A stretch of 64,000 nt of DNA from Campylobacterales bacterium. GTDB lineage: Bacteria > Campylobacterota > Campylobacteria > Campylobacterales > Sulfurimonadaceae. The notes beneath the pieces are model-generated. The model worked only from the letters and a program-made list of their open reading frames with translations, made no database searches and was not told where the DNA came from. Within the stretch, counting starts at the first letter, position 1. The number at the start of each line of letters is the position of its first letter. The DNA lies in contig JAPLGM010000008.1 of NCBI GenBank assembly GCA_026390165.1, positions 1 through 64,000 of the forward strand, in the 5' to 3' direction. Below, piece by piece: positions 1 to 45,851 of this stretch. The translations under genes and the position numbers were made by a program.

Positions 1-84
1 CACTGGTAAGCTATATGATCTTGCCTGTTCTCGTGCTTGTTCTGATATCTCTTCTTGGAATATTGTCAATAAATCTCTGGTCAT
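1..84 (-). CDS. Partial unrecognised CDS running off the left edge
   Basis: An open frame of 28 codons starts at an ATG at 84 and stays open to base 1, so only the N-terminus is in the window. It begins MTRDLLTIFQEE and continues with a Glu/Gln/Arg-rich, probably helical stretch. An AAGG-type ribosome binding site lies about 8 bases upstream, which supports real initiation. I do not recognise the family. Its presence is inferred from the open frame and start signals only. Confidence 0.4.
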   Translation of the reverse strand, partial: MTRDLLTIFQEEISEQAREQARSYSLPV

Positions 85-452
85 TTTTAGCCTTTTTAGG
101 GTCTATAAGCAATAAATGTTCTTAGTATCGGAATGGGCTAGTTTTCCATATATATTACCTTAGAATAAAGGGGACAGGCTACTTTAATACTCGTTGATAA
201 CTATTTCAGCTGTCTACATTCTTGCTTGGAAAGTGAAAGTTTTCCTAAGCATCTCGATTTACTTCGGTTGCACCATCTTACTTTTCCCTCACCGTATAAT
301 AAACCCCGCCTCCGCTTTCATGACTCACCAATGTTAACTAAAAAAGAAGAGTGACCAGCTATCGCTCTGCCAAATCCATTTATAATACGTTTTCATGGGA
401 TTATCATATCATATATTCATATGATTAGACGTAACACGGTAGCAATAAAAGT
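85..452. other. Gene-free leader region, AT-rich
   Basis: About 370 bases separate the partial gene at the left edge from the exonuclease stop. I find no convincing open frame. An imperfect AT-rich hairpin (7-base arms 408-414 and 419-425) lies close to the exonuclease stop and has no T-tract. Promoters for the leftward partial gene must lie here, but I cannot pick one with confidence. Confidence 0.5.
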
Positions 453-977
453 TTAAAGAACAACATCCATTTTGTTCAGAATCTCTAATGTTTTAGTGAC
501 GTCGTAAATCGCACTGTGATAGTGTTCTTCATCAAACGCGATACGGTAAAACTTACAGGTCTCGATCAATTTTGGGTTTTTGAGATTTCCTTTTACATTC
601 ACGGCTTTAACGAACGGCTTGTTCTCTTTCATCGTGCAAAAATGGCGATCAAAACTCACCAGTTCGCCGATATGGCGAAGTTCAAACGTGACGTTATGCG
701 CAACCAGAGTCTTCGTCCCTCTGCAAAAATCGATAAATTCGATGTCATCGGCGAAATACTCTTCATAATCGGCATCCCCACGCAGTCTTTTGATCCGTTC
801 AGGAGAGAGTTTATGAACTGCCAACGCGTGAGTATTGACCTCATACTCTGAAAAATAGTAGCGGTGAAACGTGTCGATCACGACATAGTCACCCTCAACG
901 TGTTTGACACGAAAGCAGGCGACCTCGATCACGTCGTGTATATTGGCGGAGTTGGTCTCGAAATCCAGAATAATCAA
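453..977 (-). CDS. DEDDh-family 3'-5' exonuclease
   Basis: Predicted RNase T / DNA polymerase III epsilon-like exonuclease of about 174 residues. ExoI is the near-N-terminal ILDFETNS (Asp and Glu bind the metals). The middle has an ExoII-like LVAHN segment, and the C-terminal HSAIYDVTKT supplies the His and Asp of ExoIII. I chose a TTG start at 977 because GAGGGAG (983-989) lies just upstream and the protein then begins directly with the first strand (MIILDFETN). An in-frame TTG at 1004 would add nine residues. It stands alone and is divergent from the rhodanese gene. Short stand-alone proteins of this type are known in Campylobacterota; the substrate (DNA proofreading or RNA trimming) cannot be told from sequence. 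Confidence 0.82.
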   Translation of the reverse strand: MIILDFETNSANIHDVIEVACFRVKHVEGDYVVIDTFHRYYFSEYEVNTHALAVHKLSPERIKRLRGDADYEEYFADDIEFIDFCRGTKTLVAHNVTFELRHIGELVSFDRHFCTMKENKPFVKAVNVKGNLKNPKLIETCKFYRIAFDEEHYHSAIYDVTKTLEILNKMDVVL

Positions 978-1105
978 TGTGTCTCCCTCTGTTTTAGTAA
1001 GCAAATAATAGCCAAATCCTTTTACGTGTCTCCTCCGATAGAGACCAATAATTTTAGTAAAGGGGATAACTTGCTAAAATAGCGAAAAAATTGGAGTTTT
1101 ATTGT

Positions 1106-1504
1106 ATGTTTACTGATATTGTTTCTTTGGGTATTCCCCTTTCATTGGTTCTCTTAGTTGCTTATTCCAAAGGGTGGATATTCGCCAATTTTAAATCGAT
1201 CACCCCTGCACAAGCCTCTGAGCTTTTAAAAAACAACAAAGAGGTTTTTCTCTTAGATGTTCGAACACCTGCCGAGTTTTCTCAAGAACGGATTAAAGGA
1301 TCAACCCTCATCCCTTTACACGATTTGTCCCAAAGTCTTTCAAAGCTTAATAAAGTGAAAGATAAAACGGTGATTGTTTATTGCCGCAGTGGGAATAGAA
1401 GCGTTAGTGCCTCACGTATCCTTGCAAAAAATGGATTTATCCCTCTCAATCTTAAAGGGGGAATCGGGTTATGGCAAAATGAAGGGTTAAGTGTTATTCG
1501 ATGA
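1106..1504 (+). CDS. Membrane-anchored rhodanese-domain protein
   Basis: A single rhodanese domain of 132 residues follows an N-terminal hydrophobic segment (about residues 4-20) that should anchor it in the inner membrane. The domain contains LLDVRTPAEFSQERIKGS and the active-site loop CRSGNRS, with the catalytic Cys near residue 93. Such proteins transfer sulfane sulfur or bind persulfide. An upstream in-frame TTG exists at 1091, but its own bases form the GGAG ribosome binding site (1093-1096) of the ATG at 1106, so the ATG is preferred. The gene is monocistronic, followed by about 120 bases before the nitrate operon. A link to sulfur metabolism is plausible for this type of organism but not shown. 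Confidence 0.88.
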   Translation: MFTDIVSLGIPLSLVLLVAYSKGWIFANFKSITPAQASELLKNNKEVFLLDVRTPAEFSQERIKGSTLIPLHDLSQSLSKLNKVKDKTVIVYCRSGNRSVSASRILAKNGFIPLNLKGGIGLWQNEGLSVIR

Positions 1505-1587
1505 CAAAAATACGAAAAACACTATTTTCATGTAGGTGATTAAAAAATAATCATAAAGTTGTCTCATACTTCACTATTTTGCTTTAT

Positions 1588-1622
1588 TATACTTGCAGAT
1601 AAAAAAGTCTTAATAGCAAGGA
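1588..1622 (+). promoter_or_regulatory. Likely promoter -10 and RBS of the nitrate assimilation operon
   Basis: A TATACT -10 element at 1588-1593 lies in a T-rich context, 36 bases before the cobA start. AAGGA at 1618-1622 is the ribosome binding site. No good -35 box is seen, as is common for sigma70 promoters in Campylobacterota, which use periodic T-rich upstream sequence instead. No clear regulator site for nitrogen control is visible. Confidence 0.4.
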
Positions 1623-1628
1623 ATACTT

Positions 1629-2405
1629 ATGAATGGCAAACTCTATCTTATCGGATGCGGACCGGGTGATGCGGATCTGTTGACCCTTAAAGCACTCAAA
1701 ACCATTGAAAAACTCGATATCGCCCTCATCGATCATCTCCTCACCCAAGAGATCATTGACCTCATCCCCACCCATACCCAAGTCATATTTGTCGGCAAAG
1801 AGAAAGGGAAACACAGCTTCCCCCAAGATCAGATCAACGCAATGATAACCGAATACGCCCACCAAGGGCACACCGTAGGTCGGCTCAAATGCGGTGACCC
1901 TTATATCTTCGGTCGCGGTACGGAAGAGGCGATTTACGCCACAAAAAGCGGAATAGAAACCGAAGTGATCCCTGGAATATCCTCGGCATTTTCGGCCCCT
2001 CTCTCCGCCGGTATCGCCCCCACGGCACGTGGTGTTAGCTCTGGGATATCGGTTGTCTCGGCACACCTCTCGGGAGATCGGGTCAATCTGGCATGGATAC
2101 CGATGCTTAATGTCAAAGATCACACCACCGTGGTACTGATGGGACTAAGCCGTACTCGACAAATCGTCAAAGAGGCACTCGATAGCGGCATTGACCCGAC
2201 GCTCCCTGTCGCCATCGTCTCAAATGCCACAACCGCCATCCAGACCTCCATCGTTACCACATTAGGCGAACTCATTGGTGCGGCAAAAGGGGCTCCTAAA
2301 CCGGCTATTTTAGTTTTTGGCGATGTTGTCAATCTCGCACAAACCCTTCCGAAATATCAGTATGAGACCAAGGAGGCAAACTATGACATCGCTAAAGCAA
2401 GCTAA
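1629..2405 (+). CDS. cobA: Uroporphyrinogen-III C-methyltransferase (SUMT)
   Basis: Predicted SAM-dependent methylation of uroporphyrinogen III at C2 and C7 to precorrin-2, the entry to sirohaem. The 258-residue length fits the single-domain CobA/SUMT type. The N-terminal YLIGCGPGDADLLTLKA and the central RLKCGDPYIFGRG are the two family signatures, the second lining the SAM pocket. The start follows a clear AAGGA. The next gene encodes a sirohaem-dependent nitrite reductase whose start lies inside the last 23 bases of this gene, so the two are probably translationally coupled. Context says this copy supplies sirohaem to NirA. The CysG dehydrogenase/chelatase half is not in this window. Confidence 0.93.
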   Translation: MNGKLYLIGCGPGDADLLTLKALKTIEKLDIALIDHLLTQEIIDLIPTHTQVIFVGKEKGKHSFPQDQINAMITEYAHQGHTVGRLKCGDPYIFGRGTEEAIYATKSGIETEVIPGISSAFSAPLSAGIAPTARGVSSGISVVSAHLSGDRVNLAWIPMLNVKDHTTVVLMGLSRTRQIVKEALDSGIDPTLPVAIVSNATTAIQTSIVTTLGELIGAAKGAPKPAILVFGDVVNLAQTLPKYQYETKEANYDIAKAS

Positions 2406-4023
2406 TGAAGCGCGCAGTACCAAACGGCACAAAATTGAAATAATCAAAGATGGATTTAACGCGACCCAAGCGTGGGAACGGCTCATAGGGTATTCCAAAA
2501 CGGGGTATGCCTCTATCACCGAAGAGGATAAAGATTTCGTCTTGAAAAGTTTCGGTGTCTTTGACCGCCCTGCCACCCCTGAAAAATTTATGATCCGTGT
2601 CCGTATCGCGGGGGGGGCTTTGAGTGTGGAACAGGCATTAGTATTAGCCGATGTTGCCAAGCGTTTTGGATCCGATTATATTGATCTTACCACCCGTCAG
2701 CAGATTGAATTGCGTTACCTTTGTATTCAAGAGCTCCCTGAAGCACTTGCCCTTTTAGAGCGTGTCGGACTCACCAGTTACCAAACAGGAGTTGATAATT
2801 TTCGCAATATCCTCCTTGATCCCCTCGATGGTTTGGCAGAAGACAATATCCTCTCATGTCAGAAAATCATGGAAGAGATACAAGCACTCTTTTTGAAAAA
2901 AGAGGAGTGGATTACGACTCTCCCCCGTAAGTTTAATATTGGGATTAACGGTTCACTCTCCAACCGATGTAATATCTTCGGGCAAGATTTCGCCCTCTCT
3001 CTCGCCCAAAAAGAGGGGGTTTACGGATTTAATCTCTATTTGGGAGGACGCGTCGGATCGTTGGCACAAGATGCGGATATGTTTGTACTGCCCAATGAAG
3101 CATTAGAGGTATTTACCGCCGTTGTTAACCTCTTCAAAACCTATGGTTTCCGTGATAATCGTAATAAAAACCGTCTGAAATTTCTCATCGAAGCCGTTGG
3201 TATGGAGGAGTTTCGGGCTGCTATCATCGAGTATCTGGATCACCCAATGCCATGTGCAGGGGAAAATCTCACTGCGCTGGAGGGGGGAGACCATTATGGA
3301 AAGCTTCTCCTCAACAATGAAACCGTTGCCCTATATGTAGCAGTCCCCTCAGGAATTTTTAGTGGCACAGCCTTGCATCAAGCAGCAATAATAGCCCAAG
3401 AACAAAACGGCGCCATCCGCCTTACAATAGAGCAAAACCTCATCATTACGGGCATTTGCGACGAACAAAGTGCCCTTGCCTCACCACTGTTCGTTCACTA
3501 TCCAAACCGCCCCTCCCCCTATATGGCAAACCTCATCGGTTGCGCAGGAAGCGAACATTGCCCTTTTGGTGTTATTCCCGGTAAACCCGATGCCATTGCC
3601 ATGAGCGAATACCTCTCTTATCATGTCCCCCTAGAGGATGCCAAAGTACGCCTCTACTGGTCAGCGTGCATCAAAGGGTGCGGTATTCATGGGGTGGGCG
3701 ATATAGGATTCGTCGGGTGTAAAGTAGCCCGAGAGGGGAAAACGGTTTTGGGAGTCGATATTTTTCTCGGTGGAAGTCTCAGCGGTGAAGAGGGGAAACT
3801 TCTCCTAAAAGGGGTAATCTTGGACGAAGCACGTGAGTATGTGGCTGAATTGATGGTTCTTTACCGTGACAATCGTATCGCTCATGAGAGTTTAGAGCAA
3901 TTTATCCAACGGCTTCGAGTTCGCTATGAGATGGGGGAGATTGCCGATATTATCCGAAACAACCACACCGTTCGCCGTGTAAATGGGACGGATTACAGAA
4001 CGTTTGAGATGGAAACAGCATGA
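2383..4023 (+). CDS. nirA: Ferredoxin-dependent assimilatory nitrite reductase
   Basis: Predicted six-electron reduction of nitrite to ammonium in the cytoplasm using a sirohaem and a [4Fe-4S] cluster. The 546 residues show the duplicated NIR/SIR architecture. Cluster and haem ligands are Cys387 and Cys393 (GCAGSEHCPFG, CX5C) and Cys429 and Cys433 (ACIKGCGIHG, CX3C). I chose the ATG at 2383 because AAGGAGG (2370-2376) precedes it; an upstream ATG at 2317 lacks such a site. The start overlaps cobA by 23 bases and the stop overlaps nasA as ATGA. A sulfite reductase is the alternative, but the nitrate reductase neighbour favours nitrite. Confidence 0.9.
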   Translation: MTSLKQANEARSTKRHKIEIIKDGFNATQAWERLIGYSKTGYASITEEDKDFVLKSFGVFDRPATPEKFMIRVRIAGGALSVEQALVLADVAKRFGSDYIDLTTRQQIELRYLCIQELPEALALLERVGLTSYQTGVDNFRNILLDPLDGLAEDNILSCQKIMEEIQALFLKKEEWITTLPRKFNIGINGSLSNRCNIFGQDFALSLAQKEGVYGFNLYLGGRVGSLAQDADMFVLPNEALEVFTAVVNLFKTYGFRDNRNKNRLKFLIEAVGMEEFRAAIIEYLDHPMPCAGENLTALEGGDHYGKLLLNNETVALYVAVPSGIFSGTALHQAAIIAQEQNGAIRLTIEQNLIITGICDEQSALASPLFVHYPNRPSPYMANLIGCAGSEHCPFGVIPGKPDAIAMSEYLSYHVPLEDAKVRLYWSACIKGCGIHGVGDIGFVGCKVAREGKTVLGVDIFLGGSLSGEEGKLLLKGVILDEAREYVAELMVLYRDNRIAHESLEQFIQRLRVRYEMGEIADIIRNNHTVRRVNGTDYRTFEMETA

Positions 4024-6047
4024 ACCCTAAAGTTGAAACCGGTTGTCCTTTTTGCGGTACAGGGTGCGCCCTTAGCGTCGAATGTAGAGAGGGAACCTAT
4101 AAAGTAAAAGGGGATAAATCCAACCCCTCCACCCAAGGGGATCTGTGCTTTAAACCAATACAAATGGCAAAAGCTCTTGACGCGAATCGATTGACAACGC
4201 CCCTTTATCGTCGTGATAAAAGCGAACCGTTTCACGAAATTTCGTGGGATGATGCACTTGCCATCCTTGCAAAAAATATTTCATTCCTCCCCAAAGAAGC
4301 CCTCTATTTTTACCTCTCAGGACAACTCCTCACCGAAGAGAGCTACCTCTTTACGAAACTCATCAAAGGGCATTTAGGAACCAACAATGTCGATGCCAAC
4401 TCCCGTCTTTGCATGGCAACCGCCGTTGTTGCCCATAAAATGGTTTTCGGAAGCGATGGGGCAATAGGCAATTACGCCGATATCGACGATGCCCAGGTGA
4501 TCCTTATCAGCGGTTCGAACCCTGCATGGGCACACCCTGTCCTCTTTCGCCGTATTCTTGCCCGTAAAAAAGCTCACCCTGAGACGCAAATTATCGTTAT
4601 TGATCCGATCTATACCGAAACGGCGCAAAAAAGCGATCTCTGGTTGGGACTCTCCAGTGGAAGCGATACGATGCTTTATAATGCCCTTTTAGGGGAGCTT
4701 TATCGTAGAGGCAAATGCGATCTTTCCTTTATCGACCGCGCAACGCAGGGGTTTGAACTCGCCATTACGGAGGCACTCAAAACTCCGTTTAAGGACGCTA
4801 TTCAATCGTGCGGGCTCTCTCTAAATGATGCCCAAACACTTCTTGAACTCTTCACCTCTCCTAAAAAAATCATCGGTCTGTGGTGTCAAGGGCTCAATCA
4901 AGCGCACGATGGGGTAATGCGCAACCTCGGATTTATCAACCTCTTTTTAGCCACGGGACGGGTCAATAAAGAAAAGGGGCTCCCCCTCTCCCTCACAGGT
5001 CAGCCCAATGCAATGGGGGGGCGAGAGGTGGGGTATCTCTCAAATGGCTTGCCAGGGTACCGTGATGTTCGTGATTCTAGTGATAGAGAAGTATGCGAAA
5101 AACACTGGAATCTTCCAACAAACAGCATCTCCTCCTCGGTAGGGATAACGATCACCGATGCTATTGATAAAATTTCGACTAATGATATTCGATTTTTATG
5201 GGTCGCCTGCACGAATCCACTTCTCACCCTCCCCGATCTTAATAAAACGCGCCACGCCTTGATCCGTGATGATCTCTTTTTGGTCGTCCAAGATTGTATC
5301 CTCAGCCAAACGGCCCAGCTTGCCAATCTCGTATTGCCTACGGCATCATGGGGAGAAAAAGAGGGGAGCATGACCAATTCGGAGCGTTTCATCAAGCGTG
5401 TCCGCCCGTTTAAATCTCCCCCCGATGGAGCCAAAAGTGACAGTGATATTGTCTGTGCGGTTGCCAAAGAGCTTGGATTCTCTGGCTTTGATTTTACCCA
5501 TACAAAAGAGGTCTATGATGAGTACAAACACCTGAGTAAGGGGAGATTATGCGACCAAAGCAGCCAAGAGTATGAAACCCTCTCGTACCAATGGGGGGGA
5601 GAACGGCTCTACCGCGATGAAGTTTTCGCCACTCCTTCACGAAAAGCACACTTTCATCCGATCCTCTCTTCCGCCCCCACGTTAAACAGCGGTGCGTTTG
5701 TTTTGATTACGGGACGGACGAAAAAACAGTGGCATACGATGACCCGAACGGGGGAGGTCTCTGAACTTCTCAAAGATGAGGAAGAGCCCTATTTGATGAT
5801 GAACCACTCTGAAGCGGATGCTCTTGGAATAAATGAGGGGGAGTATGCCATTATCAGCAACCCCCTTGGCTCTCTCGAACTCCCCATCCGTTTTGGAACA
5901 TTAGCACCCCACCATCTCTTTGCCCCATTTGGCTATGGGCAAACACCGATCAACACCCTCGTCCCTGTGATCAATGACCCTTTTTCATCCCAAAGTGCCC
6001 TCAAATCGGCGCGGGTTACGGTAAGAGCCAAGGGGATTGCGCTATAA
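4020..6047 (+). CDS. nasA: Assimilatory nitrate reductase catalytic subunit, molybdopterin enzyme
   Basis: Predicted cytoplasmic reduction of nitrate to nitrite with a Mo-bisMGD centre. The N-terminus carries the [4Fe-4S] ligands Cys9, Cys12, Cys16 and Cys43 (CPFCGTGC and then GDLCFKP). NANSRLCMAT holds the likely Mo-ligand Cys near residue 130. The C-terminal molybdopterin dinucleotide-binding domain starts with ITGRTKKQWHTMTRTG. There is no twin-arginine signal, which separates it from periplasmic NapA and fits NasA/NarB. The length of 675 residues is that of a single catalytic subunit without the extra C-terminal NasA-type iron-sulfur or flavin domain, so a ferredoxin or a separate small subunit should donate electrons. 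Translation is coupled to nirA. Confidence 0.9.
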   Translation: MNPKVETGCPFCGTGCALSVECREGTYKVKGDKSNPSTQGDLCFKPIQMAKALDANRLTTPLYRRDKSEPFHEISWDDALAILAKNISFLPKEALYFYLSGQLLTEESYLFTKLIKGHLGTNNVDANSRLCMATAVVAHKMVFGSDGAIGNYADIDDAQVILISGSNPAWAHPVLFRRILARKKAHPETQIIVIDPIYTETAQKSDLWLGLSSGSDTMLYNALLGELYRRGKCDLSFIDRATQGFELAITEALKTPFKDAIQSCGLSLNDAQTLLELFTSPKKIIGLWCQGLNQAHDGVMRNLGFINLFLATGRVNKEKGLPLSLTGQPNAMGGREVGYLSNGLPGYRDVRDSSDREVCEKHWNLPTNSISSSVGITITDAIDKISTNDIRFLWVACTNPLLTLPDLNKTRHALIRDDLFLVVQDCILSQTAQLANLVLPTASWGEKEGSMTNSERFIKRVRPFKSPPDGAKSDSDIVCAVAKELGFSGFDFTHTKEVYDEYKHLSKGRLCDQSSQEYETLSYQWGGERLYRDEVFATPSRKAHFHPILSSAPTLNSGAFVLITGRTKKQWHTMTRTGEVSELLKDEEEPYLMMNHSEADALGINEGEYAIISNPLGSLELPIRFGTLAPHHLFAPFGYGQTPINTLVPVINDPFSSQSALKSARVTVRAKGIAL

Positions 6048-6054
6048 TCCGCCC

Positions 6055-6387
6055 ATGAAAACTGAACCCTTCACCTTCCACATTGACCCTACTCCAACGT
6101 TGCCGACGCGTCAATGCCGCTTTATGGCTCGCCTTTTCGGATGGGGTTTAAGCTATGGCAATTACGCCGTTGCCCTACTCGTATGGTGGGTGAGTGACTG
6201 GTTTATCGCCATTGGAGCCTTATTACTCGGATTTATCGTTTTCGGAATCTTCCGATCCAAGCTCCGCAACGACGCTGTCCCCCCAGCCCAACGTGAATAC
6301 CCGTATGATGATGCCGCCATTGCCACATGGTATATGTCACGCAATCACTGCTTTACCTTCCCTAAGGGGGACGAAAGTACTCTATGA
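6055..6387 (+). CDS. Small membrane protein of unknown function in the nitrate operon
   Basis: A 110-residue protein with a central hydrophobic region (about residues 33-65) that should form two closely spaced transmembrane helices, followed by a charged C-terminal tail. I do not recognise a family. The ATG at 6055 lies 7 bases after the nasA stop; a TTG inside nasA would add six residues. Its stop overlaps the next start as ATGA, so it is in the operon. It is too small to be a nitrate transporter. A membrane accessory role is only a guess from position. Confidence 0.6.
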   Translation: MKTEPFTFHIDPTPTLPTRQCRFMARLFGWGLSYGNYAVALLVWWVSDWFIAIGALLLGFIVFGIFRSKLRNDAVPPAQREYPYDDAAIATWYMSRNHCFTFPKGDESTL

Positions 6388-6938
6388 AATCCTACCTCAT
6401 CACCGACCCCACTTTCTACGGCAATACCCCCGATACCCTCAAATCCTCATTAGCAACAGTATTTTCCAAACATATTCCCGATTTTGTCGTTTTTAGAGAC
6501 AAACAAACCCACTGTTATGATGAACTGGCACAGACGTTTATTGAGGTAAGCCGTACGTATTGTATTCCAAAGATAGTATTGCACGGTGACTACAGACGTG
6601 CAAACGCCTTAAAAGCTGACGGAGTCCATCTAACCTCGACACAGTTTGATGTGATCCCTGATGCAAAAGCTTTAGGGCTCTATGTCATCATTAGTACCCA
6701 CACTCATGATGAAGCATTAAAAGCGCAAAAATCAGGAGCAGATGCCATCACCTACAGCCCGATTTTCCCCTCGCCAAACAAGGGGGAACCCAAGGGTTTA
6801 GGGGATTTAAAAGAAATAGTGGCTAAAATAAGGATACCTATTTTTGCATTGGGTGGAATTGTCACCCAAGAGCAGATATTAGCGGTGGAGAAGTGTGGAG
6901 TATATGGCTTCGCCTCTATCCGTTATTTTATCCCTTAA
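6384..6938 (+). CDS. ThiE/TenI-family TIM-barrel protein (thiamine phosphate synthase-like)
   Basis: ThiE joins HMP pyrophosphate and thiazole phosphate to give thiamine phosphate; TenI relatives aromatise the thiazole. The 184 residues start with YLITDP and contain FRDK, VHLTSTQ, ISTHTHDEALKAQKSGAD and ITYSPIFPSPNKGEPKG, then FALGGI near the C-terminus, all in family order. It is shorter than typical ThiE (around 210). Canonical ThiE has KDR where this one has RDK, and the second half lacks an obvious pyrophosphate-binding Ser/Thr-Lys stretch, so a TenI-like role cannot be excluded. It is coupled by ATGA to the membrane protein upstream and sits 12 bases before gatB. Confidence 0.72.
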   Translation: MKSYLITDPTFYGNTPDTLKSSLATVFSKHIPDFVVFRDKQTHCYDELAQTFIEVSRTYCIPKIVLHGDYRRANALKADGVHLTSTQFDVIPDAKALGLYVIISTHTHDEALKAQKSGADAITYSPIFPSPNKGEPKGLGDLKEIVAKIRIPIFALGGIVTQEQILAVEKCGVYGFASIRYFIP

Positions 6939-45245: not shown

Positions 45246-45274
45246 TTGACAAACAAAAGAAATTCCCCTATAAT
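45246..45274 (+). promoter_or_regulatory. Consensus sigma70 promoter of the tRNA operon with GC discriminator
   Basis: TTGACA (45246-45251), a 17-base spacer and TATAAT (45269-45274) are a perfect consensus. The GC-rich CCGCCC just downstream of the -10 is the discriminator type seen in stringently controlled stable RNA promoters. Confidence 0.9.
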
Positions 45275-45314: not shown

Positions 45315-45390
45315 GTCCCGTTAGCTCAGCTGGTAGAGCATTTCACTTTTAATGAAGGGGTCGATGGTTCGAATCCATCACGGGACACCA
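45315..45390 (+). tRNA. tRNA-Lys (anticodon TTT)
   Basis: Complete cloverleaf: acceptor GTCCCGT/ACGGGAC, anticodon loop CTTTTAA reading TTT, T-arm GGTTCGAATCC, and CCA encoded. First of six tRNAs in the operon. Confidence 0.97.
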
Positions 45391-45408: not shown

Positions 45409-45484
45409 GACCCTTTCGTCTAGTGGCCAAGGACATTATCACTTCATGGTAAGAACAGAGGTTCAAATCCTTTAGGGGTCGCCA
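45409..45484 (+). tRNA. tRNA-Glu (anticodon TTC) with unusual C33
   Basis: Acceptor GACCCTT/AGGGGTC (one G-U), D-arm GTC...GAC as in other tRNA-Glu, anticodon stem TTATC/GGTAA, T-arm AGAGG TTCAAAT CCTTT, CCA encoded. The anticodon loop is ACTTCAT, so position 33, before the TTC anticodon, is C instead of the nearly universal T. All other positions look functional. Confidence 0.92.
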
Positions 45485-45509: not shown

Positions 45510-45585
45510 GGGAGTTTAGCTCAGTTGGTAGAGCGCTACCCTTACAAGGTAGATGTCACAAGTTCGAGTCTTGTAATTCCCACCA
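45510..45585 (+). tRNA. tRNA-Val (anticodon TAC), copy 1
   Basis: Acceptor GGGAGTT/AATTCCC, anticodon loop CTTACAA reading TAC, CCA encoded. Identical to the copy at 45693-45768. Confidence 0.97.
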
Positions 45586-45591
45586 TAGTGT

Positions 45592-45668
45592 GCGGCCATA
45601 GTTCAGTTGGTTAGAATGCCTGCCTGTCACGCAGGAGGTCACGGGTTCGAGTCCCGTTGGCCGCGCCA
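45592..45668 (+). tRNA. tRNA-Asp (anticodon GTC), copy 1
   Basis: Acceptor GCGGCCA/TGGCCGC, anticodon loop CTGTCAC reading GTC, T-arm GGGTTCGAGTCCC, CCA encoded. Identical to the copy at 45775-45851. Confidence 0.97.
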
Positions 45669-45692: not shown

Positions 45693-45768
45693 GGGAGTTT
45701 AGCTCAGTTGGTAGAGCGCTACCCTTACAAGGTAGATGTCACAAGTTCGAGTCTTGTAATTCCCACCA
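45693..45768 (+). tRNA. tRNA-Val (anticodon TAC), copy 2
   Basis: Second copy of the Val tRNA, sequence the same as copy 1, 24 bases after the first tRNA-Asp. Confidence 0.97.
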
Positions 45769-45774
45769 TAGCGT

Positions 45775-45851
45775 GCGGCCATAGTTCAGTTGGTTAGAAT
45801 GCCTGCCTGTCACGCAGGAGGTCACGGGTTCGAGTCCCGTTGGCCGCGCCA
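45775..45851 (+). tRNA. tRNA-Asp (anticodon GTC), copy 2
   Basis: Second copy of the Asp tRNA, sequence the same as copy 1; last gene of the tRNA operon. No clear hairpin terminator follows. Confidence 0.97.

What the first reader, a model, noticed from the sequence alone, without database searches (positions are those of the whole stretch)
45409..45484. tRNA-Glu gene with C at position 33
Aligned against the usual tRNA-Glu frame, the anticodon loop is ACTTCAT: the base 5' of anticodon TTC is C instead of U33, which is nearly universal and makes the U-turn. A32 and T38 could even pair, making a five-base loop. The other five tRNAs in the operon have T33.
Basis: partly seen in the sequence, partly recalled or inferred. 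Interest (0 to 1): 0.5.

Follow-up and report, generated by a model that had tools for sequence, protein, structure and literature searches.

The report
Second tRNA-Glu withdrawn from decoding
This unusual glutamate tRNA is not a mistake or a relic but one member of an old, well-kept second kind of glutamate tRNA whose decoding loop and elongation-factor contact look weakened, which suggests that it feeds glutamate to something other than the ribosome, most likely heme synthesis.

Summary
Confirmed: the tRNA-Glu at 45409-45484 has C33 (loop ACTTCAT). The gene ("type A") has a strong match in 163 of 200 genomes of the family, including 19 of 19 single-contig ones, and each of the 86 copies read has C33, with compensated stem changes. 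Type A is an order-wide paralogue (A2-U71, G73, long D-loop) beside a normal "type B" (G2.U71, A73, 8-nt D-loop). Of 74 distinct type A sequences 58 lack U33 or a purine at 37, against 0 of 32 type B, while stems stay paired. T-stem pair 51-63 is A-U in 65 of 74 type A and G-C in 32 of 32 type B; A51-U63 is one of the weak EF-Tu pairs of non-translational Staphylococcus tRNA-Gly. Best reading: a chargeable tRNA-Glu mostly withdrawn from translation and kept as glutamate donor for glutamyl-tRNA reductase (heme). The heme role is inferred. Main doubts: tRNA-Val(GAC) here also has C33; C33 tRNA-Glu genes with normal T-stems occur elsewhere.

The parts
45409..45484 (+). type A tRNA-Glu(TTC), CCA encoded
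   Evidence: ARAGORN, Rfam RF00005 44.4 bits, sequence
45442..45442 (+). C33 in place of U33
   Evidence: the same base in 86 of 86 family genomes read
45441..45447 (+). anticodon loop ACTTCAT with pairable A32 and U38
45457..45473 (+). T arm with A49-U65, G50.U64, A51-U63; A51-U63 sets it apart from type B (G51-C63), A49-U65 does not
   Evidence: meaning of the pairs from PMC4052509 (passage)
45422..45430 (+). 9-nt D-loop typical of type A
45246..45274 (+). sigma-70 promoter-like site TTGACA-17-TATAAT upstream of the tRNA operon
   Evidence: 12 of 12 consensus bases; the number of sites (1, at 9 of 12 or better) is not above shuffles (mean 1.5)
45315..45390 (+). tRNA-Lys(TTT), first gene of the operon
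45510..45585 (+). tRNA-Val(TAC), copy 1
45592..45668 (+). tRNA-Asp(GTC), copy 1
45693..45768 (+). tRNA-Val(TAC), copy 2
45775..45851 (+). tRNA-Asp(GTC), copy 2; the operon holds the only Asp and the only Val(TAC) genes among the 40 tRNAs found in the genome

Best explanation
The gene makes a tRNA-Glu that glutamyl-tRNA synthetase can still charge (UUC, A37, G1-C72, U11-A24, U13-G22, A46 and no residue 47 are present) but that is poorly used by the ribosome: C33 removes the base that makes the U-turn, and A51-U63 in place of G51-C63 lowers the hold of EF-Tu. A second tRNA-Glu, type B, with a normal loop and the strong T-stem, does the decoding. Type A is kept as a source of glutamyl-tRNA that escapes EF-Tu and is free for a non-ribosomal user, most likely glutamyl-tRNA reductase, the first enzyme of heme synthesis. 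Shown here: conservation, paralogy, loop and T-stem differences, presence of type B. Inferred: charging, weak EF-Tu binding, weak decoding, heme use.
For: Two tRNA-Glu types across the order. Loop deviations at 33 or 37 in 58 of 74 distinct type A and 0 of 32 type B sequences. Stems of type A paired in 518/518 acceptor, 296/296 D, 364/370 anticodon and 369/370 T cells, with 28 different anticodon stems and 28 different T stems. A51-U63 in 65 of 74 type A, G51-C63 in 32 of 32 type B. In four tRNA sets from four families (177 tRNAs) the type A gene deviates at 33 or 37 each time; the only others are Val(GAC) in this genome and one gene that I read by eye as a tRNA-Lys with an insertion. Single-contig genomes of the family: 19 of 19 hold it. 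Shared operon with the only Asp tRNAs found. EF-Tu and glutamyl-tRNA reductase compete for Glu-tRNA in Acidithiobacillus (PMC4284751, passages).
Against: tRNA-Val(GAC) in this genus also has C33 (23 of 34 copies found in 91 genomes), and no heme role is known for it. Outside the order C33 tRNA-Glu genes mostly keep G51-C63 (43 of 53 distinct), so C33 alone does not mark withdrawal. A49-U65, the other weak pair of the window tRNA, is as common in type B (29 of 32) as it is not in type A (30 of 74), so only 51-63 separates the types. A37 is a strong Glu identity base in E. coli (PMC9976931, passage), so C37/T37 relatives may be charged badly. 11 of 16 type A sequences with a normal loop already have A51-U63. 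No heme gene was seen by eye beside the gene in the three loci looked at. HemA, GluRS and expression data were not examined.
Confidence: 0.48

Rival explanations
1. A redundant minor decoder. Type B took over most decoding, so selection on the type A loop and T-stem relaxed; it still decodes a little and is kept because it sits in an expressed operon and does no harm.
For: Type B was found in 31 of 31 other family genomes in which it was sought (26 of 30, the 4 misses and one more); tRNA-Val(GAC), also redundant beside Val(TAC), has C33 too; in f10 (3 of 4 genomes), f9 (1 of 2) and f12 (1 of 1), where the pattern found type A alone, the loop is normal.
Against: Loop ACTTCAT is in 86 of 86 genomes of the family; type A is more alike across the family (93-100% in the rows that one search listed; weaker rows were cut off) than type B (75-97%, with no match at all in genus g11); stems are kept by compensation; in f7 it is a solo gene in 39 of 41 loci, yet kept in 41 of 42 genomes.
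Confidence: 0.3
2. A donor of glutamate, or an uncharged signal RNA, for some other non-ribosomal use than heme (peptide modification, regulation).
For: The same sequence evidence as for the heme reading; the sequence does not name the user.
Against: The gene is spread over a whole order with no shared neighbour gene in the three loci looked at, which suits a housekeeping user such as heme synthesis better; the anticodon is TTC or CTC in 74 of 74 (the script required [TC]TTC-type letters there, and TTC was fixed in several search patterns, though not).
Confidence: 0.12
3. C33 is edited or modified after transcription so that the tRNA decodes normally.
Against: Relatives of the same paralogue keep U33 and lose the purine at 37, and the T-stem differs too; editing of base 33 would mend neither.
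Confidence: 0.04
4. Relic, pseudogene or sequencing error.
For: Lowest tRNA score in the genome and two normal copies.
Against: Genes at 96-100% identity in 39 of 41 genus genomes, compensated stem changes, encoded CCA.
Confidence: 0.02

Closest known systems
Coxiella burnetii tRNA-Glu2 (PMC5423948; abstract and passages read)
   Same: A second tRNA-Glu kept beside the decoding one and proposed to serve heme synthesis; deletion slows growth
   Different: Anticodon CUC, horizontally acquired, one species; no loop or T-stem change was reported in the passages read. Here the paralogue is order-wide, mostly UUC, and altered at 33/37 and 51-63
Acidithiobacillus ferrooxidans tRNA-Glu set (PMC4284751; passages read)
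   Same: Several tRNA-Glu shared between heme and protein synthesis; EF-Tu and glutamyl-tRNA reductase compete
   Different: There the specialised one is not a reductase substrate and is thought to serve translation only; the reverse is proposed here
Non-proteinogenic tRNA-Gly of Staphylococcus aureus (PMC4052509, PMC9976931; passages read)
   Same: Extra isoacceptors with A49-U65 and A51-U63 that escape EF-Tu and feed a non-ribosomal enzyme; the window tRNA has both pairs
   Different: Another amino acid and user (cell wall); those also lose G18-G19, which the window tRNA keeps; here A49-U65 is shared with the decoding type B; U33 loss was not mentioned in the passages read
Natural mistranslating tRNAs with A33 (bacterial tRNA-ProX) or G33 (PMC11415595; passages read)
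   Same: Natural tRNAs without U33
   Different: They pair one amino acid with another's anticodon; here anticodon and Glu identity agree

Membership tests
tRNA-Glu | cloverleaf with Glu anticodon and CCA | tested here: met
tRNA-Glu | bacterial Glu identity: U34 U35 C36 A37, G1-C72, U11-A24, U13-G22, A46, no residue 47 | tested here: met
   read in the window tRNA against PMC9976931; the weak pair U2-A71 is not met (A2-U71)
tRNA-Glu | charged with glutamate in the cell | not testable with these tools
   none
decoding elongator tRNA | U33 | tested here: not met
   C33 here
decoding elongator tRNA | purine at 37 | tested here: met
   A37 in the window copy; 39 of 74 distinct type A relatives have C or T there
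non-translational aminoacyl-tRNA donor | T-stem pairs weak for EF-Tu | tested here: inconclusive
   A49-U65 and A51-U63 by sequence against PMC4052509; A49-U65 is shared with type B, and binding was not measured
non-translational aminoacyl-tRNA donor | a separate tRNA covers the codons | tested here: met
   two canonical tRNA-Glu(TTC) in the genome
heme-dedicated tRNA-Glu | used by glutamyl-tRNA reductase, deletion lowers heme | not testable with these tools
   no experiment; HemA was not searched for
pseudogene or relic | decay of stems and lack of conservation | tested here: not met

The most novel reading that the evidence does not exclude
A whole bacterial order carries a glutamate tRNA that has been taken out of protein synthesis at two points, EF-Tu contact and the decoding loop, the latter several times independently, after a second tRNA-Glu took over decoding; the old one lives on as the dedicated glutamate carrier for heme synthesis.
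Probability: 0.38. Interest if true: 0.8.

Novelty: new variant of a known kind. Interest (0 to 1): 0.62.

Why it matters
How cells split glutamyl-tRNA between heme and protein synthesis is an old question. A natural pair of tRNA-Glu types, one normal and one stripped of decoding features, in cultivable bacteria would make the split directly testable by deletion, charging and EF-Tu assays. It also warns that tRNA gene counts can overstate decoding capacity.

Tried and rejected
Sequencing error, relic and pseudogene: rejected by conservation. Type A as sole tRNA-Glu in genus g11 and in g16 genome G055, where a first search showed no type B: rejected, type B genes were found. In f7 genome G482 no clear type B was found; left open. 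C33 as a unique mark of this tRNA: rejected, tRNA-Val(GAC) has it too, and 66 stretches of the genome collection match a C33 tRNA-Glu pattern with another base than A at 32 (7 are Helicobacter type A; one match, L364, is not called a tRNA by ARAGORN). A neighbouring heme gene: none seen by eye in the translations of three loci; no family search was run on them. Searches for prior reports showed no paper on this paralogue among the rows listed; subscription papers are mostly not held, and the work on Helicobacter tRNA1Glu/tRNA2Glu cited in PMC9976931 was not read.

Full report
Observation. ARAGORN and Rfam place a tRNA-Glu(TTC) at 45409-45484, second gene of a six-tRNA operon Lys-Glu-Val-Asp-Val-Asp. 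The loop is ACTTCAT, so base 33 (45442) is C; A32 and U38 can pair. Upstream lies a promoter-like site with 12 of 12 consensus bases (45246-45274; the number of sites in the region is not above shuffles). The operon holds the only tRNA-Asp and tRNA-Val(TAC) genes among the tRNAs found in the genome, so it is very likely expressed (inference).

The genome. Rfam gives 40 tRNA matches; this one scores lowest (44.4 bits). Two further tRNA-Glu(TTC) genes, identical to each other and with loop TTTTCAT, lie on contigs C7 and C9. Of the 40 tRNAs, 38 have T33; the exceptions are this gene and tRNA-Val(GAC); all 40 have a purine at 37.

Conservation. 39 of 41 genomes of the genus hold the gene. In the family 163 of 200 have a match below E 1e-15 by my count of the table; the other 37 are drafts of 20 or more contigs, and 19 of 19 single-contig genomes have it. 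A loop-free pattern found nothing in the 26 of those 37 that I tried. Base 33 was read in 86 family genomes (49 of the 52 drawn, 23 more, 1): C in all. One search fixed C33 in its pattern, but searches did not, and no T33 type A was seen in the family. Copies without a printed sequence were not read. The two alleles read differ by a compensated change at 28-42.

Two kinds of tRNA-Glu. I sorted tRNA-Glu sequences of the order into type A (A2-U71 and G73) and, of the rest, type B (D-loop of 8 bases). With these definitions type A has a D-loop of 9 (71) or 10 (3) bases and type B has G2.U71 and A73 in 32 of 32; one f5 sequence fits neither. Type A is single copy in the genus (two copies in G152 and G197 of the family); type B mostly has two copies. 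Type A loops by the tool's family label: f1 (the window's) C33 in 86 of 86; f7 found in 41 of 42, with C37 in 34, T37 in 1, C33 in 2, normal in 4; f4 found in 25 of 29, C37 in 6, normal in 19. In f2, 5 of 5 tried hold it and 2 deviate (one C33+T37, one C37); in f3, 5 of 7 tried and 2 deviate (C37, T37, both with anticodon CTC); most f2 and f3 genomes of the draw were not tried with that pattern. Type A-like genes found in f5, f6, f8, f9, f10, f11, f12 and f13 are normal at 33 and 37. One f2 genome matches a Helicobacter burdigaliensis contig in length and tRNA, and six other Helicobacter contigs carry the same C33+T37 loop on differing stems. So loss of U33 or purine 37 seems to have arisen several times: at 37 in four families, at 33 at least twice (f1/f7 and Helicobacter); this is read from labels, not from a tree.

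Numbers. Among distinct sequences, 58 of 74 type A and 0 of 32 type B deviate at 33 or 37 (Fisher p 1.7e-15). Related sequences are not independent, f1 and f7 are over-sampled and sought C33, so p overstates. Type A stems are paired in 518/518, 296/296, 364/370 and 369/370 cells, with 28 anticodon stems and 28 T stems; the search patterns and a filter (at least 5 acceptor pairs) imposed parts of the acceptor, D arm, A46, C48 and T loop, but not the pairing of the anticodon and T stems. In four tRNA sets (40, 55, 46 and 36 genes) type A deviates each time; in G200 it is not even among the Rfam matches at E 0.001.

Second signature. Pair 51-63 is A-U in 65 of 74 type A and G-C in 32 of 32 type B (p 2.7e-19, same caution). 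The window tRNA has A49-U65, G50.U64, A51-U63. Pairs 49-65, 50-64 and 51-63 set EF-Tu affinity (PMC8219837, PMC11231383; passages); [quoted passage not shown] A49-U65 with A51-U63 is the change reported for S. aureus tRNA-Gly that escape protein synthesis (PMC4052509). But A49-U65 is also in 29 of 32 type B, and 43 of 74 type A have G49-C65, so only 51-63 separates the types. Normal-loop type A of f8, f12, f13 and one f3 genome keep G51-C63. A51-U63 is common in tRNAs for other amino acids in these genomes, so it is telling only against the Glu background.

Mechanism. The window tRNA keeps the bacterial Glu identity set apart from the weak pair 2-71, so charging is likely. Poorer EF-Tu binding and a spoiled U-turn would keep it off the ribosome, and type B covers GAA and GAG. 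Glutamyl-tRNA reductase competes with EF-Tu for Glu-tRNA (PMC4284751), so a weak EF-Tu binder is the natural donor for heme. I recall, without having read it here (not held), that E. coli reductase reads the tRNA core (U8, U13-G22-A46, 19-56, no 47) rather than the anticodon. The heme step is inference.

Against. Val(GAC) carries C33 in 23 of the 34 copies found in 91 genomes, which favours plain relaxation of redundant tRNAs. Outside the order, C33 tRNA-Glu genes mostly keep G51-C63 (43 of 53 distinct) and A37 (47 of 53). C37 might harm charging. Neither HemA nor the synthetases were searched.

Verdict. Closest precedents are Coxiella tRNA-Glu2 and Staphylococcus tRNA-Gly; this combines features of both and is, as far as the listed searches show, undescribed.

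Noticed in passing
G000:C3:45843-45918 (L050:344-419): tRNA-Val(GAC) with C33, loop TCGACAA. In relatives C33 goes with A38 and T33 with T38 (23 and 11 of the 34 copies found), as if the two loop bases switch together.
   Followed up: partly
L319 (G216:C1:711518-711594): By eye a tRNA-Lys beside the type A gene with four extra bases in its anticodon loop, called Leu(TAA) by ARAGORN.
   Followed up: no
L357-L421 without the Helicobacter loci: C33 tRNA-Glu genes, loop mostly CCTTCAA, in Dehalococcoidia and other Chloroflexota, Patescibacteria, Planctomycetes and others; two on a Pseudomonas plasmid contig (L358). T-stems mostly normal at 51-63.
   Followed up: partly
L394 (Helicobacter sp. 10-6591): Type A tRNA-Glu with a broken pair in the anticodon stem, read as tRNA-Arg by ARAGORN.
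   Followed up: no
order-wide type B tRNA-Glu: Type B carries a G2.U71 wobble and A73 in 32 of 32 distinct sequences, unlike E. coli tRNA-Glu (U2-A71 in PMC9976931; G73 recalled).
   Followed up: no
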